Below, piece by piece: positions 43,447-50,125 of a stretch of DNA of 64,000 nucleotides. A program made the translations under genes and the position numbers. Where the stretch lies: assembly GCA_004843165.1 (NCBI GenBank), contig CP039459.1, positions 1,277,501 through 1,341,500 of the forward strand, in the 5' to 3' direction. Every line of letters begins with the position of its first letter. Position 1 is the first letter of the stretch. The notes under the pieces were generated by a model, which was given only the letters and a program-made list of their open reading frames with translations, did not search any database and had not been told where the DNA came from. Source of the DNA: Acetobacteraceae bacterium. GTDB taxonomy: Bacteria > Pseudomonadota > Alphaproteobacteria > Acetobacterales > Acetobacteraceae.

Positions 43447-46400
43447 ATGTCTTCCATTTCACGTTTTTTTATTGATCGTCCCGTTCTCGCTTGGGTTATT
43501 GGCATTATTGTGATGCTTGTGGGCACGGTCTCTCTGTTTAAAATGCCAATTTCGCAATATCCGCCGATTGCAGCGCCAGCGGTAAATATTACCGTTTCTG
43601 ATCCTGGAGCTTCGGCAGAAACGGTTAATAATACCGTGGTTCAGCCAATCTTGCAGCAAATGTTTGGTCTGGATCATCTGGAATATGTCACGTCCACTTC
43701 TTACGGGAATGGGACGATGCTGATTGATTTGACCTTTGAGCAGGGGACTAATCCTGATATTGCGCAGGTGCAGGTTCAAAATAGACTTCAGGTTGTGCAG
43801 CCGCAATTGCCGCAGGAAGTGGTCTCCCAGGGGATTAGCGTTTTAAAAGAGCAAGCCAGCTTTATGATGGTTCTCTCTTTTTCGTGTAAAGATGGCAGTC
43901 TGAGTGATGCCGATATTGCCGATTATGTGGCTTCGAATATTCAAGATCCAATTTCTCGGGTGAGTGGTGTGGGGGATCATCAGCTTTTTGGGGCAGAATA
44001 TGCGATGCGTATCTGGCTCGATCCCGATAAGCTTTATAATTATAATTTAAACATTTCAGATGTTGAAAATGCTTTAAAAGAGCAAAATATTCAGCTCCCA
44101 GCCGGGGAGTTGGGGGGATTACCAGCAAATAAGAATGCCAAAATTAACGCCACTATTATCGGGCCGAGACGTTTATCCGATGTGAAGCAATTTAAACAAA
44201 TTCTCATCAAGGTGAATCAAGATAATAGTCGTGTTACTTTAGGTGATATTGCTAAAATTGAGCTGGGACCGCAGAGTTTTAATATTTCTGCCTCTGAAAA
44301 TAATTATCCTGCGGCGGGTCTAGGCTTGAAGCTTGCCCCCGGCGCTAATCAGCTAGAAACAGAAAATGCTGTTTTAGCAAAAATCAATGAGCTTTCAGAA
44401 TATTTTCCGCCGGGACTGTCTTACGGCATTCCTATGGATACGAAACCTTATATTACACACTCTATTGAGGAGGTTGTCGAAACCCTCATTATTGCGATTA
44501 TTTTGGTCGTGCTTGTGATGATGGTTTTTTTACAAAATCTTCGGGCAACGATTGTCCCAACTTTAGCCATTCCTGTTGTGCTTTTGGGGACTTTCGGGAT
44601 GTTGTCGGCAATGGGATATACTTTAAATACGCTGACAATGCTTGCCCTTGTTCTTGCTGTTGGACTTTTGGTGGATGATGCAATTGTTGTCGTAGAAAAT
44701 GTCGAACGCGTGATGAATGAGGAAAAACTCTCCCCCAAGGCGGCGACCCGTAAATCCATGGAGGAAATTAGCGGAGCACTTTTTGGTATTGTGATGGTTT
44801 TGACCGCTGTTTTTTTGCCAATGGCGTTTTTTGGTGGTTCTGTTGGGATTATTTACCGTCAGTTTTCCATTACAATTGTTGTTGCCATGTGGCTTTCTCT
44901 TGGTGTCGCATTGATTTTGACACCAGCAATGTGTGCGACGCTTTTAAAGCCTCATACCCATTCTACTGTGCAGGGCAGAGGATTGTTTGGCAAAATTCAG
45001 ACGCTTTTCCAAAAAGCAGGTGCACGCTTTAACCAATTTTTTGATGCGCTGACGGCTGAATATATCAAGGGTGTTGAAAAGGTGCTCCAACATTGGAAGG
45101 CCTCTTTTTCCATTTTTTGTGTTTTGGCAGTTTCTGCGACTTTATTATTTTGCAAATTGCCTTCAGGATTTCTTCCTGATGAGGATCAGGGCAAAATTTT
45201 TGGCATGATTCAGTTACGCTCTAATGGCACGCAGGATAAAGTCGTTGAAATCACACGGGATTTATCGGACTGGGTGCTGAAAACCTATTCAGTGAATATT
45301 AACTCTGTTTTTGCCATGAATGGTTTTAGTTTCGCAGGGCAAGGACAAAATAACGGCGCTTTTTTCATTAATTTAGCCCCATGGGATGAAAGACCCCGTC
45401 AAGACCAGTCTGCCCAAACAATTGCTATGGGTATTATGCAGCATTTTTGGGAAGATCCAAGGGCACGTGTCTTTGCTTTTAGCCCGCCCGCAGTGCAGGA
45501 GTTGGGGAATGCGACAGGATTTGACCTTGAACTGGTCAATGAGGGGAATTTAACGCGGGAAGAATTTTTAGCAAGGCGTGACGATATTTTGATGCGTGCG
45601 GCACAAGATCCGCTTTTAACCTCTGTTCGTCCAAATGGGATGGAGGATGCAGCGCAATATGTGTTTGAAGTCGATAGGGGCAAAGCCAACGCTATGGGCG
45701 TCAGTAACGAAGATATCAATGATACGATTTCGGGTGCCTTAGGGTCTATTTATGTCAATCAGTTTTTAAGAAATAATCGTGTCAAACAGGTCTACATTCA
45801 GGCGGAACCCTCTGCTCGTATGAATGAAAGAGATCTAAAACGCTGGTATATCCGTAACCATACCGGTACAATGGTACCATTGAATGCTTTTACTTCGGGT
45901 CATTGGATTACAGGGCCGCAAAAGCTTGAAAATTACAATGGTTTACCTTCTTTTGAAATTAATGGTGAGCCCGCATCCGGTGTGAGTTCGGGACAGGCTA
46001 TGGCCGAAATGGTCAAGTTGGTAAAAGAAACGCCGGGCGGTGGTGTGGGATATGCTTGGGTTAATCTTTCTTATGAACAGGTTTCCGCTGGCGGATCGAC
46101 TTTGCCTTTATATGCTTTAGCCTCAATCATTATTTTTCTTTGCCTTGCGGGACTTTATGAAAGTTGGACAATCCCTGTTGCCGTGCTTTTGGTTTTACCG
46201 CTTGGGGTGTTGGGGGCCGTGAGTTTTAGCATGGGACGAGGCTATGCCAATGATATTTATTTTCAGATTGGGGTGCTGACGACTGTCGCCTTGTCGGTTA
46301 AAAATGCCATTTTGATTGTTGAGTTTGCATATGAATATTATAACAAAGGGACTTCATTAGCAGATGCTGCCATGCGGGCGGCACAACAGAGACTGCGTCC

Positions 46401-46614
46401 TATTTTGATGACTTCTATTGCGTTTTTATGCGGTGTGTTACCTTTGGCGATCGCTGTCGGGGCTGGGGCTGGGGCACGTCGTGCCATTGGCACATGCGTT
46501 GTTGGCGGTATGTTATCGGCAACGCTTTTTGCCGTGTATTTTGTCCCTTTGTTTTTTGTGGAAGTGTTACGCTTTTTTAAAGTTAAGCCGGTCGGAGAAG
46601 ACGGGGAATGCTGA
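43447..46614 (+). CDS. RND multidrug efflux transporter (HAE1 family, AcrB-like)
   Basis: Inner-membrane proton-driven pump of 1055 residues, full length. It starts with the typical FFIDRPVLAWVIGIIVMLVG helix. The proton-relay aspartates lie in LAVGLLVDDAIVVVENVERV (around residue 405-424), and a later segment LSVKNAILIVEFA carries the matching Lys. Two large periplasmic loops are present (residues about 30-335 and 560-870). It lies 9 bases after the adaptor gene and overlaps the outer-membrane gene by 7 bases. Confidence 0.97.
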   Translation: MSSISRFFIDRPVLAWVIGIIVMLVGTVSLFKMPISQYPPIAAPAVNITVSDPGASAETVNNTVVQPILQQMFGLDHLEYVTSTSYGNGTMLIDLTFEQGTNPDIAQVQVQNRLQVVQPQLPQEVVSQGISVLKEQASFMMVLSFSCKDGSLSDADIADYVASNIQDPISRVSGVGDHQLFGAEYAMRIWLDPDKLYNYNLNISDVENALKEQNIQLPAGELGGLPANKNAKINATIIGPRRLSDVKQFKQILIKVNQDNSRVTLGDIAKIELGPQSFNISASENNYPAAGLGLKLAPGANQLETENAVLAKINELSEYFPPGLSYGIPMDTKPYITHSIEEVVETLIIAIILVVLVMMVFLQNLRATIVPTLAIPVVLLGTFGMLSAMGYTLNTLTMLALVLAVGLLVDDAIVVVENVERVMNEEKLSPKAATRKSMEEISGALFGIVMVLTAVFLPMAFFGGSVGIIYRQFSITIVVAMWLSLGVALILTPAMCATLLKPHTHSTVQGRGLFGKIQTLFQKAGARFNQFFDALTAEYIKGVEKVLQHWKASFSIFCVLAVSATLLFCKLPSGFLPDEDQGKIFGMIQLRSNGTQDKVVEITRDLSDWVLKTYSVNINSVFAMNGFSFAGQGQNNGAFFINLAPWDERPRQDQSAQTIAMGIMQHFWEDPRARVFAFSPPAVQELGNATGFDLELVNEGNLTREEFLARRDDILMRAAQDPLLTSVRPNGMEDAAQYVFEVDRGKANAMGVSNEDINDTISGALGSIYVNQFLRNNRVKQVYIQAEPSARMNERDLKRWYIRNHTGTMVPLNAFTSGHWITGPQKLENYNGLPSFEINGEPASGVSSGQAMAEMVKLVKETPGGGVGYAWVNLSYEQVSAGGSTLPLYALASIIIFLCLAGLYESWTIPVAVLLVLPLGVLGAVSFSMGRGYANDIYFQIGVLTTVALSVKNAILIVEFAYEYYNKGTSLADAAMRAAQQRLRPILMTSIAFLCGVLPLAIAVGAGAGARRAIGTCVVGGMLSATLFAVYFVPLFFVEVLRFFKVKPVGEDGEC

Positions 46615-48167
46615 ATCGCTATTTTCGACTGATCCTTTCTGGACTGGTTGGTTTTTCTATTTCAGGATGTAACTTTGCACCGATTACCAAGCGGCCGCAT
46701 ATTAATACGTCACGCTCTTATCCGAATGATGCAGGCGGAAAGCCAAATGATAAACTGGCCTCGGAGAATATTTTAGAATTGGGATGGGAGGATTTCTTTA
46801 CAGATCCCCGTCTTAAAATGCTCATTCAAAATGCGCTTGAATATAATCGGGATTTGGCAGGGCAGTTTGAAGCGATTTTACAGGCACGTGGGCAATATAT
46901 GGCGCAAAGAGGGATGTTATTGCCGCAAATTGGCATTACGGAACAAGCGCAATTTATGGACCCTTCGGATGCTGCGGGTTATTCCTTTGCGCCGGGAAGT
47001 GGTCGAAGTAATCCATTTTTTGAATATTATAACGAAGGGATCGGTTTCGCTTCTTATGAGGTTGATTTTTGGGGGCGGGTTGCCAACCTCTCCAAAGCTC
47101 AAAAGGAGCTGGCACTTCAAAATAGTGAAAATCTTCGAAGCTTATGGCTGAGTATTCTTTCTCAAGTTGCGAACACCTATATTAATTGGCTCGAAGACAG
47201 AGATCTTTTGATTCTAGCATGTGAAACCTATTTATCGCAGAAACATACCTTAGATCTCATTCAAATGACTTTTAACATGGGGCAGGCAGATGGTTTGACA
47301 GTAGCAGATGCACGGACACAGGTTGAGCAGTCTGCAACACAAATCGCACAAGCCTCTCGCCTGATGGCGAATGATGAACATATGCTGACGGAATTGGTTG
47401 GTGGTAAAATGCCGGAATTTCTACCGCCGCCGAGACCGCTGGGCGAGCAAACAATTTTACGGGATCTTCCAGCGGGTTTGCCTTCACAGCTTTTGAATCA
47501 GCGGCCTGATATTCGTTCGGTAGAGCATAAATTGCGCCAGACAAATGCTGAAATTGGTTCTGCACGTGCGGCTTTTTTCCCTAAATTTACTTTGAGTGCG
47601 TCAGAGGGGAATAATGCGCTGCAATTTAATCATTTATTCAGTAAATTTGCAGAAACATGGAGCCTTAATCCACAAATGACGATCCCTGTTTTAACATGGG
47701 GGGTGAATCTCGGAAATTTGAGAACAGCAGAATCTCAGGCAAAGCAAGCGGCTTCGGACTACCAGAAAACAGCTTTGGCTGCCATTCATGAAGTGTCGGA
47801 TGCCTTGACAGCAAGAGAAACCTATCTCAGGCAAGAAAAACACACGCATCAGCTTGTGGATGCGACAGGGCGGAGCTATGCGCTGGCATGGATGAAATAC
47901 CAAGAGGGCATTGAAAATTATCAAATTGTTTTAGAACAGCAACGCAGTTTTTATAATTCTCAGCTCAGTCTTATTCAGGTTGAGGCAGCGCGCTTCCAAA
48001 ATATGGTCACCGTGTATCGGGTGCTAGGTGGCGGATGGCGTAAGAATGGTCTATTGGATGCACCGGTTGAGAAGCGGGATGCGACCAAGGCAGAAATACC
48101 AGCACGGCAACGTCCAACATGGCTGAGAGGCTGGTGGGAAGGCGATGGCTACGGAAAGGGATTTTAG
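46608..48167 (+). CDS. Outer-membrane efflux lipoprotein (OprM/NodT family)
   Basis: 519-residue trimeric outer-membrane channel of the TolC superfamily. The lipoprotein signal ends in SISGC (Cys about residue 21), then NFAPITKRPH. Typical features: WEDFFTDPRLKMLIQNALEYN, then two repeats of the long helices, with LLNQRPDIRSVEHKLRQTNAEIGSARAAFFPKFTLSAS near residue 295 as the strongest signature. Completes the tripartite pump. It might also serve the type I secretion genes at 18771-23190, which have no channel of their own in the window (speculative). Confidence 0.95.
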   Translation: MLNRYFRLILSGLVGFSISGCNFAPITKRPHINTSRSYPNDAGGKPNDKLASENILELGWEDFFTDPRLKMLIQNALEYNRDLAGQFEAILQARGQYMAQRGMLLPQIGITEQAQFMDPSDAAGYSFAPGSGRSNPFFEYYNEGIGFASYEVDFWGRVANLSKAQKELALQNSENLRSLWLSILSQVANTYINWLEDRDLLILACETYLSQKHTLDLIQMTFNMGQADGLTVADARTQVEQSATQIAQASRLMANDEHMLTELVGGKMPEFLPPPRPLGEQTILRDLPAGLPSQLLNQRPDIRSVEHKLRQTNAEIGSARAAFFPKFTLSASEGNNALQFNHLFSKFAETWSLNPQMTIPVLTWGVNLGNLRTAESQAKQAASDYQKTALAAIHEVSDALTARETYLRQEKHTHQLVDATGRSYALAWMKYQEGIENYQIVLEQQRSFYNSQLSLIQVEAARFQNMVTVYRVLGGGWRKNGLLDAPVEKRDATKAEIPARQRPTWLRGWWEGDGYGKGF

Positions 48168-48168
48168 G

Positions 48169-48609
48169 ATGAAGCAAGGGCGTTTTTTTTCAAATAATTT
48201 TCAAAAAATAGCGATAATGGCATTTTTGATGTCGCCGACAGCCTTCTTTGGCACAAATGCTTTTGCTCAAATGGGTATGGGCGGCGGCGGTATGGGGGGA
48301 AGCCAATCGCAAATGCCTCAACAAATTCCCGGCGCTCCTGAAATTCCACCAGCGCCGAGCCTTGAAGAGCAATTTCAGGCTTCAGGTATTTCAAAATCAG
48401 ATTATGATCTGCATCTCTTTCACTATATCCCAAAAGGGGCGATGCTTGTTCGACAACCGGAACATCGGCGGGTTTTATTTCAGGATAAGGATCATCATTC
48501 CCTTGGTTATGCGCAGCAGAAAGGGGCAGCGATTATCTATTATGACCCACAGGGAAAGCCTATTCATGTCCAGCGTTTGAGCCCGGATGAAATGGAAGGG
48601 CTTTCTTAA
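48169..48609 (+). CDS. Small exported Met/Gly/Gln/Pro-rich protein after the efflux operon
   Basis: A 146-residue product from the ATG at 48169, one base after the channel-gene stop. A signal peptide ends ...FFGTNAFA|QMG. The mature N-terminus is a low-complexity Met/Gly/Gln/Pro stretch, then an ordered part with His-rich segments (DLHLFHYIPKGAMLV, DKDHHSLGY). The Met- and His-rich composition might mean metal binding in the periplasm, but no family is recognised. It is cotranscribed with the RND pump. Its stop overlaps the convergent transporter gene by 4 bases. An ATG at 48145 would spoil the signal peptide. Confidence 0.78.
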   Translation: MKQGRFFSNNFQKIAIMAFLMSPTAFFGTNAFAQMGMGGGGMGGSQSQMPQQIPGAPEIPPAPSLEEQFQASGISKSDYDLHLFHYIPKGAMLVRQPEHRRVLFQDKDHHSLGYAQQKGAAIIYYDPQGKPIHVQRLSPDEMEGLS

Positions 48610-49187
48610 GCCCTTTTCTGTCGGAGGATACGAGACCAGTGAAAAAGACCAACAATGGAAAGCAGGGCAAGATAGGCATAGAGCAAACCACTCATCGGAA
48701 GCCCCCAGCAGAAGAGGGATGTTGCATAGGCACCATCAGCTACCAGCCATAAAATCCAATGACAGAGATAGGCACGAGACATCCAATATTGGGCGAGCAT
48801 AGCATAAATGCTTAATGTGCCATCCCAATAAGGGTGCGGGTCATCTGTGACATGCGCAAGAAGTTCAGCCCAGAGAAAACTTCCTAAGGCAGCGAGGCTC
48901 AAATCTCGCAGGATATATAAAGGAGAATAAATAAGTGGACAAAAATCTTGAGGCGCTTGAGATTTTTTTGACCAGCTTATGAGGCCGTAAAGGCTGAGAG
49001 AGGCAAATCCAAGTTGAAGAGCGAGGGTGGCATAGAGCTTATTATATCCAAAGATGAAGATATAGAGTAAACCGCTCATCAGAAGAAAAAGCCAACCGGA
49101 ACGACGGGGAAACATAATCAGCGTTGCGCCGATCGCCGCAGAGAGTGAGGCGAAAAGTTCTATAATTTGCAGAATGCTTAGGCCCAT
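48606..49187 (-). CDS. PnuC-family transporter, second copy (probable thiamine transporter)
   Basis: 193-residue membrane protein with about seven helices, related to the PnuC vitamin facilitators. Recognisable features are FPRRSGWLFLLMSGLLYIFIF and the Trp-rich substrate region LAQYWMSRAYLCHWILWLVAD. It is clearly a paralogue of the gene 39 bases upstream, sharing the spacing of GWLFLL, AQYWMxRxxxCxW and the C-terminal YLALxSxxG. Because both lie downstream of a TPP riboswitch, thiamine or a precursor is the likely substrate rather than nicotinamide riboside. The function of two copies is unclear: two subunits, two substrates or redundancy. Confidence 0.85.
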   Translation of the reverse strand: MGLSILQIIELFASLSAAIGATLIMFPRRSGWLFLLMSGLLYIFIFGYNKLYATLALQLGFASLSLYGLISWSKKSQAPQDFCPLIYSPLYILRDLSLAALGSFLWAELLAHVTDDPHPYWDGTLSIYAMLAQYWMSRAYLCHWILWLVADGAYATSLFCWGLPMSGLLYAYLALLSIVGLFHWSRILRQKRA

Positions 49188-49226
49188 ATTTCTTCCAAAA
49201 TCTCTTTTTAAAATGTTTTACTCTGC

Positions 49227-49814
49227 TTATGTAACAGATTTTTGGAAGGACACCATCTGCCATTTTCGCCAACCCGGTACAGAAATCAAGGCAAGATAGG
49301 TAAAAAGAATGGCGGAAAAAGGGAGATGCCAAAAGAGGAGCTGAAGCGCATAGCAACTATTGACGATGATCCAGAGAGGCCAGCAACAAATAAAAGAGCG
49401 GGCCATCCAATATTGTGCCAAGAGTGAAAAACCGCTGAGAAGGCCATCCATCCATGGGGCAGGATCATCACTGAAATTTTTCAAAAAAAATCCAATACCG
49501 ATCCCTCCAATGAGGGTAAGCGTACTATCTCTGAAAATGGAAAGGGGCTCTAGAGAGATTGCCTGCCATTTTTGAGGTTGTTTTTGATCTGGAAAAGACC
49601 AGCAAATCCAGCCATAAAGATTGATAAAGGAAAAGATGATCTGGAGCGTTAGGTTGGCATAAAGATGATGTGCACCAAAAACAGCCGCATATAGAACAGC
49701 GCTGATAAGAAGAAAAAACCAGCCTGAAATTCGGGGGAGAATAAGAAGGGTCGAGCCGATGGCGCAATTTATCGCTGCAATCAGCTCAATGGTGTAAAGA
49801 TTGGGTAAAATCAT
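49227..49814 (-). CDS. pnuT: PnuC-family transporter, PnuT-type thiamine transporter (first copy)
   Basis: 195-residue multi-helix membrane protein of the PnuC family (ISGWFFLLISAVLYAAVF, then LAQYWMARSFICCWPLWIIVN, the region that lines the substrate pocket in PnuC proteins). The start codon lies 7 bases after the end of a TPP riboswitch. The ribosome binding site GGAGGGAG is part of the riboswitch 3' strand. This identifies it as PnuT, the thiamine-specific branch, on the basis of regulation rather than residues. Expected to import thiamine when cellular TPP is low. Confidence 0.88.
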   Translation of the reverse strand: MILPNLYTIELIAAINCAIGSTLLILPRISGWFFLLISAVLYAAVFGAHHLYANLTLQIIFSFINLYGWICWSFPDQKQPQKWQAISLEPLSIFRDSTLTLIGGIGIGFFLKNFSDDPAPWMDGLLSGFSLLAQYWMARSFICCWPLWIIVNSCYALQLLFWHLPFSAILFTYLALISVPGWRKWQMVSFQKSVT

Positions 49815-49820
49815 TGGAAG

Positions 49821-49895
49821 CTCCCTCCGCCCGCATGATCGGGATCAGGTTATGAGGGTACTTCTCAGTCTTTGGGATAAAGACGCCCCTGCCAA
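49821..49895 (-). promoter_or_regulatory. TPP (thiamine pyrophosphate) riboswitch, THI element
   Basis: On the minus strand the leader reads AGGGGCGTC, then the THI-box core GACTGAGAAGTACCC, then AACCTGATC-CCGATCATG and GCGGGCGGAGGGAGC. These match the conserved CUGAGA, ACCC, GAACCUGAUC-like and GCGnAGGGA blocks of the TPP aptamer. The ribosome binding site of the first PnuC-type gene is inside the last block, so ligand binding would hide it: translational control is likely. Confidence 0.95.
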
Positions 49896-49939
49896 GTCTT
49901 CATTGTTAGGAGAGACGAGAGGGGCGGTCAATCCAAATA

Positions 49940-50125
49940 TTATTTGCGTGCTTTTTCAATAATCTCGATCAGTTCGTTTAAAGGGGCTTCATCAAGCTCA
50001 ACATGAATCCAATTTTTATCTTTGTTGAGAACTTTGTGAAGAACGTCTTTCACACCCTCAATCACTTCTTTTTTTTGTTCTGGGGAGGCTGATCCACTGG
50101 CTAGTCTGACATTTACAACTGGCAT
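49940..50125 (-). CDS. Tautomerase-family protein (4-oxalocrotonate tautomerase-like)
   Basis: 61-residue product with Pro directly after the start Met (MPVVNVRLASGSASPEQKKE), as in the 4-OT tautomerases where the N-terminal Pro is the catalytic base. The fold pattern beta-alpha-beta and the EQKKEVIEGVKDVL helix agree. The Arg residues of classical 4-OT at mature positions 11 and 39 are Ser and Ile here, so real 4-oxalocrotonate activity is doubtful. It lies just upstream of the riboswitch on the same strand. Role unknown. Confidence 0.85.
   Translation of the reverse strand: MPVVNVRLASGSASPEQKKEVIEGVKDVLHKVLNKDKNWIHVELDEAPLNELIEIIEKARK

What the first reader, a model, noticed from the sequence alone, without database searches (positions are those of the whole stretch)
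48606..49895. Two PnuC-family transporters behind one TPP riboswitch
The leader at 49821-49895 carries all core blocks of a TPP aptamer, and two paralogous PnuC-type genes follow at short distance. PnuC proteins usually take nicotinamide riboside. The riboswitch points to thiamine (PnuT). Tandem paralogues under one TPP switch are unusual and could transport different thiamine-related compounds or form a hetero-oligomer.
Basis: partly seen in the sequence, partly recalled or inferred. Interest (0 to 1): 0.6.

Follow-up and report, generated by a model that had tools for sequence, protein, structure and literature searches.

The report
Riboswitch-controlled pair of vitamin-B1-salvage importers
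A small acetic-acid-type bacterium carries two sister membrane importers behind one vitamin-B1 sensor; because the genome appears to lack the usual kinase for whole vitamin B1 but has exported B1-splitting enzymes, the importers most likely bring in pieces of the vitamin rather than the vitamin itself.

Summary
Confirmed: a TPP riboswitch (RF00059, 65.5 bits) at 49900-49805 (-), with its Shine-Dalgarno inside helix P4 of the aptamer, followed by two paralogous PnuC-family genes (44% identical). Context changes the meaning. In Acetobacteraceae the PnuC-family gene normally ends an operon [TPP switch]-TonB receptor (OMthi)-APH-type kinase-PnuT (kinase present in 56 of 56 named loci that have the carrier). 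In this genus the kinase is gone, no TPK and no ThiC were found, the receptor has moved to another TPP-switched locus together with signal-peptide-bearing TenA (thiaminase II), and a thiM-thiE-thiD salvage operon is present. Both carriers have lost an Asp that is invariant in 77/77 other family members (now Asn54/Thr54), plus several other invariant residues, while keeping the substrate-binding WxxW. Best explanation: thiamine is split in the periplasm and the PnuT-derived carriers import the pieces (HMP, perhaps also thiazole alcohol) for reassembly. Intact-thiamine uptake remains a serious rival. The tandem pair was found in 1 of 397 family genomes; the sister species has one carrier and no switch in front of it. 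Interesting, testable, new variant of a known kind.

The parts
49805..49900 (-). TPP riboswitch aptamer
   Evidence: Rfam RF00059 65.5 bits; the alignment of 13 family aptamers has 97.1% paired cells and 7 pairs with changes on both sides
49824..49828 (-). Shine-Dalgarno GGAGG of pnuT1, inside the 3' strand of aptamer helix P4; 9 nt before the ATG at 49814
   Evidence: sequence and Infernal alignment
49227..49814 (-). pnuT1, PnuC-family carrier, 195 aa; Asn54 and Asn152 at the two diagnostic sites
   Evidence: PF04973 108.6 bits; AlphaFold model pLDDT 92, 4QTN Z 19.5
48606..49187 (-). pnuT2, PnuC-family carrier, 193 aa; Thr54, Asp151; orthologue of the single copy in the sister species
   Evidence: PF04973 97.6 bits; tree 100/96 with G001
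49940..50125 (-). 4-oxalocrotonate-tautomerase-family gene upstream of the switch
   Evidence: PF01361 43.1 bits; 82% identical orthologue at the same place in G001
48145..48609 (+). small exported protein convergent with pnuT2; with OEP and AcrB (46608-48167, 43447-46614) it marks the ancestral PnuT position
   Evidence: homologues next to PnuT across Acetobacteraceae

Best explanation
pnuT1-pnuT2 encode PnuT-derived facilitators that import breakdown products of thiamine rather than thiamine. Proposed flow: the TonB receptor (OMthi, other locus) brings thiamine or degraded thiamine across the outer membrane; exported TenA splits it in the periplasm to HMP (and, from intact thiamine, thiazole alcohol); PnuT1/PnuT2 pass HMP, possibly one carrier per piece, through the inner membrane; ThiD and ThiM phosphorylate the pieces, ThiE joins them, and TMP is taken to TPP. 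When TPP is plentiful it binds the aptamer, locks the Shine-Dalgarno into P4 and shuts off translation of pnuT1, with pnuT2 following by coupling/polarity. Shown: riboswitch, gene pair, SD inside P4, gene content found and not found, residue losses, TenA signal-peptide-like N-termini. Inferred: periplasmic location, substrate, direction of regulation, co-transcription, final kinase (ThiL not searched for).
For: ThiC (PF01964) and TPK (PF04263) not found in G000 or G001, with working controls. The operon kinase has no homologue there; the only APH-family hit in G000 is homoserine kinase. Two TenA genes share a TPP-switched locus with OMthi; PDB and plasmid relatives align only from about residue 27-29, after a hydrophobic signal-like N-terminus. 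thiM-thiE-thiD operon and second ThiD; de novo thiazole operon thiO/S-G-E-F under a TPP switch. Asp54-equivalent is Asp in 77/77 other family PnuTs (Glu87 in the nicotinamide riboside carrier 4QTN) but Asn/Thr/Thr here; Arg, Pro, Phe and Arg invariant in the 37-sequence set also lost; WxxW kept. A second group with a secreted thiaminase-I-like neighbour also lacks the Asp (Ser).
Against: No transport data. The Asp has not been shown to contact substrate. g1 is one lineage, so its residue changes are one event, and the thiaminase-I-linked carriers are so distant that their Ser may be ancestral. Absence of a thiamine kinase rests on two families; a non-homologous kinase is possible. The last TPP step was not searched. 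The sister species keeps one carrier without a switch, so two carriers are not obligatory. TenA prefers aminomethyl-pyrimidine over thiamine in Bacillus (as cited in PMC5627462), so the feedstock may be degraded thiamine.
Confidence: 0.5

Rival explanations
1. Both are ordinary PnuT carriers of intact thiamine, duplicated for dosage or different affinity, feeding an unrecognised thiamine kinase.
For: TPP-switched PnuC relatives are known thiamine carriers (PMC5613172, PMC7749635); the family operon OMthi-kinase-PnuT is thiamine-type; WxxW kept.
Against: No kinase by two families; loss of several family-invariant residues; exported TenA would destroy the substrate on its way.
Confidence: 0.3
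2. Division of labour: one copy takes HMP (or thiamine), the other thiazole alcohol or another pyrimidine, each paired with a TenA and ThiD paralogue.
For: G000 has two PnuT, two TenA and two ThiD where G001 has one of each; TenA1 has QDTQFV where TenA2 has QDAYYL; PnuT1 has Asn152 where PnuT2 has Asp151; duplication predates the species split.
Against: One genome pair only; no co-localisation of the partners; ThiD and TenA timings are uncertain.
Confidence: 0.12
3. Nicotinamide riboside transporters (true PnuC).
For: Both exceed the NCBIfam TIGR01528 PnuC cut-off; PnuT1 has Asn at the Asn189 site of 4QTN.
Against: The same model also passes the kinase-operon PnuT of G090, so it does not discriminate; TPP switch, thiamine synteny and tree place them among PnuT; Glu87 of 4QTN is not kept.
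Confidence: 0.04

Closest known systems
PnuT / OMthi thiamine uptake of Bacteroides (PMC5613172)
   Same: TPP riboswitch, TonB outer-membrane receptor and PnuC-family inner-membrane carrier
   Different: There one PnuT with a pyrophosphokinase (tnr3) and full biosynthesis; here two carriers, no kinase found, exported TenA, no ThiC
PnuC nicotinamide riboside transporter of Neisseria (PDB 4QTN)
   Same: Fold (Z 19.5, 190 residues) and WxxW
   Different: 22% identity; Glu87 replaced by Asn/Thr; TPP instead of NAD context
SAR11 pyrimidine salvage (thiV, TPP riboswitch, tenA; lack of thiC; PMC10881298)
   Same: ThiC-less, ThiG-bearing genome; pyrimidine carrier next to a TPP switch; TenA
   Different: Carrier is a sodium:solute symporter (ThiV), not PnuC-family
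Paenibacillus secreted thiaminase I with thiM/thiD/thiE (PMC5627462)
   Same: Proposed split-outside, import-and-rejoin salvage
   Different: Thiaminase I, other importers, and TPK is present

Membership tests
TPP riboswitch (RF00059) | Covariance-model score above gathering threshold | tested here: met
   65.5 vs 54.3 bits
TPP riboswitch (RF00059) | TPP-dependent control of the gene | not testable with these tools
   SD in P4 suggests translational repression; no binding or expression data
PnuC-family (PF04973) | Family profile score above cut-off | tested here: met
   108.6 and 97.6 bits, cut-off 27.3
PnuC-family (PF04973) | Pnu fold with 7 helices | tested here: met
   PnuT1 model pLDDT 92; 4QTN is the only strong match, Z 19.5. 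PnuT2 was not modelled
PnuC-family (PF04973) | Substrate-binding WxxW in helix 6 | tested here: met
   W145/W148 and W144/W147
PnuT (thiamine) | Thiamine regulon context (TPP switch, OMthi) | tested here: met
   OMthi is at another locus in this genus
PnuT (thiamine) | Accompanying thiamine kinase/TPK that traps thiamine | tested here: not met
PnuT (thiamine) | Residues invariant in Acetobacteraceae PnuT (Asp54-equivalent and others) | tested here: not met
PnuT (thiamine) | Transport of thiamine | not testable with these tools
   no assay
PnuC (nicotinamide riboside) | NCBIfam TIGR01528 score above cut-off | tested here: inconclusive
   59.8 and 63.1 vs 42.45 bits, but the kinase-operon PnuT of G090 also passes
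PnuC (nicotinamide riboside) | Genome has NadR/NR kinase | not tested

The most novel reading that the evidence does not exclude
PnuC-family carriers have switched from the cation thiamine to neutral halves of thiamine (HMP, perhaps one carrier for each half), forming with exported TenA a 'split in the periplasm, rejoin in the cytoplasm' route that replaces thiamine kinase; the key change is loss of one membrane acid conserved in thiamine and nicotinamide riboside carriers.
Probability: 0.42. Interest if true: 0.75.

Novelty: new variant of a known kind. Interest (0 to 1): 0.5.

Why it matters
No PnuC-family HMP or thiazole carrier turned up in the papers searched. If confirmed, it would add a substrate class to this facilitator family, name a candidate specificity residue that one point mutation can test, and show how a thiC-less bacterium could use environmental thiamine without a thiamine kinase. 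It also warns that 'PnuC-family gene behind a TPP switch means thiamine transporter' can mislead annotation and models of vitamin exchange.

Tried and rejected
(1) A first genome-contig scan with the three g1 carriers found no relative. (2) Early Rfam scans of PnuT loci seemed to show no TPP switch in relatives; this was an artefact of short flanks, because the switch sits upstream of OMthi about 3.5 kb away. (3) PF03070 across the family hits 340 of 397 genomes; the family also covers PqqC, so it says nothing on TenA distribution. (4) TIGR01528 cannot separate PnuT from PnuC. (5) The idea that the sister species keeps a degenerate switch was rejected: no RF00059 match even at permissive thresholds. 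(6) A Sphingobium TonB-TenA pair also has a TPP switch, but its receptor is unrelated to OMthi and its TenA lacks a signal peptide, so it is not the same arrangement. The 2018 PnuT paper (Jaehme et al., PMC5749112) is not in the library, so pocket residues beyond WxxW could not be taken from it.

Full report
Observation. The window's minus strand carries a TPP riboswitch at 49900-49805 (RF00059, 65.5 bits, E 1.3e-10), then two ORFs of 195 and 193 aa, both PF04973, 44% identical, separated by 39 nt. The Shine-Dalgarno GGAGG (49828-49824) lies in the 3' strand of aptamer helix P4, nine bases before the ATG at 49814. The simplest reading is therefore an aptamer that hides the ribosome site directly when TPP is bound (inferred). 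pnuT2 has its own GGAAG site, so its control would be through coupling or polarity (inferred). An AlphaFold model of PnuT1 (pLDDT 92) has seven helices and matches PnuC 4QTN far above anything else (Z 19.5 over 190 residues).

Own genome. The genome is one 1.92-Mb contig. It has just these two PF04973 genes and three TPP riboswitches. The second precedes a TonB receptor (OMthi) and two tandem TenA genes (L006). The third precedes thiO/thiS-thiG-thiE-thiF (L007; the thiG call is from reading the sequence, as NCBIfam returned no family for that ORF). Elsewhere lie thiM-thiE-thiD (L020) and a second thiD (L021). ThiC and TPK were not found; the ThiC search found its family in 13 of 14 control genomes and the TPK search in 7 of 14. 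The only APH-family protein is homoserine kinase. The genome thus appears able to make thiazole, to phosphorylate HMP and thiazole alcohol and to join them, but shows no known way to make HMP or to phosphorylate thiamine.

The family norm. In 397 genomes of the same family, 63 have a PF04973 match and only this genome has two adjacent intact copies. In named Acetobacteraceae and a few others (Bombella, Saccharibacter, Gluconobacter, Asaia, Acetobacter, Zymomonas and more), all 56 loci that contain the carrier have the order OMthi, APH-type kinase, PnuT. PnuT often faces a small exported protein, an outer-membrane efflux protein and AcrB, exactly as pnuT2 does in the window. The window is therefore best read as the remnant of that locus. 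In this genus OMthi has moved away, TenA sits next to it instead of the kinase, the kinase has no homologue, and the carrier has been duplicated.

The sister species. G001 has one carrier, at the same place after the tautomerase; it is the orthologue of PnuT2 (70% identity against 44% between the paralogues). It has no detectable TPP switch in front of that gene, but it has a switch in front of OMthi-TenA. The tree groups the three proteins with 100/100 support and PnuT2 with G001 at 100/96, so the duplication predates the split and G001 most likely lost pnuT1. The stem is long (3.0 changes per column), in line with altered constraint. G000 also has two TenA and two ThiD where G001 has one of each.

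Residues. Aligned with 37 family PnuTs, the g1 carriers differ at positions that are invariant there: Arg to Pro27, Pro to Phe/Leu/Ala33, Asp to Asn/Thr/Thr54, Phe to Leu159 and Arg to Trp/Trp/Cys162 (PnuT1 numbering). With a larger set the Asp remains Asp in 77 of 77; 4QTN has Glu87 there. The WxxW described as substrate-binding (PMC7162841) is kept. Thiamine and nicotinamide riboside are cations, HMP and thiazole alcohol are mostly neutral, so loss of an acid conserved in the carriers of cations fits a change of substrate. That is inference: whether this residue touches substrate was not tested. Two distant PnuC-family genes (L057, L058) lie next to a signal-peptide-bearing thiaminase-I-like protein (TIGR04541 44 and 42 bits, below that model's cut-off of 175; PDB 2thi E 6.5e-5 with the LC motif aligned) and have Ser at the same site. 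This is a second case where a carrier beside a secreted thiaminase lacks the acid, though the Ser could be ancestral in that branch.

TenA. All three g1 TenAs carry a hydrophobic N-terminal extension ending in a signal-peptidase-like motif; known TenAs align only from about residue 27-29. A Sphingobium relative behind a TPP switch and an unrelated TonB receptor lacks such an extension. TenA1 differs from TenA2 at the QDxYY motif (QDTQF), so TenA1 may have another substrate or low activity.

Mechanism proposed. OMthi takes up thiamine or its degradation products; TenA releases HMP in the periplasm; PnuT1/PnuT2 carry HMP, perhaps also thiazole alcohol; ThiD, ThiM and ThiE rebuild TMP. Each enzyme assignment rests on family models; location, substrate and flux are inferred. 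Similar logic is published for SAR11 (thiV-tenA under a TPP switch, no thiC; PMC10881298) and was proposed for Paenibacillus (secreted thiaminase I with thiM/D/E; PMC5627462), but with other importers. PnuT with OMthi as a thiamine route is known from Bacteroides (PMC5613172), and riboswitch class is said to predict PnuC-family specificity (PMC7749635). In this case that prediction may be right about the regulon but not about the molecule.

Limits. The residue argument rests on one lineage plus one distant group. Regulation and transport need the bench.

Noticed in passing
L058 1940-3427 (+), 3460-4188 (+); L057 1767-3242 (+), 3211-3990 (+): Secreted thiaminase-I-like protein next to a divergent PnuC-family gene in two genomes (L058 also with an OMthi-type receptor); no TPP switch found in the upstream stretches checked.
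   Followed up: partly
L006 4609-5346 and 5386-6090 (+): Tandem signal-peptide TenA paralogues, 61% identical with identical stretches at both ends (possible gene conversion); TenA1 lacks the usual QDxYY motif.
   Followed up: partly
L021 1468-2268 (+): Second, stand-alone ThiD in this genome, absent from the sister species.
   Followed up: partly
L007 5988-7205 (-): ThiO and ThiS appear fused in one ORF (ThiO residues 9-324, ThiS 345-405).
   Followed up: no
window 49926-49880 (-): The 5' strand of the aptamer can pair with GCCCCT just after the tautomerase gene, forming a hairpin that would exclude the aptamer; it may be the tautomerase terminator and an alternative state of the switch.
   Followed up: partly
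L054 5117-5977 (+): PnuT of G090 has an insertion of roughly 40 residues in the middle loop.
   Followed up: no
L118-L178: The APH-type kinase between OMthi and PnuT in Acetobacteraceae is a candidate thiamine kinase; NCBIfam did not name the one tested (G090).
   Followed up: partly
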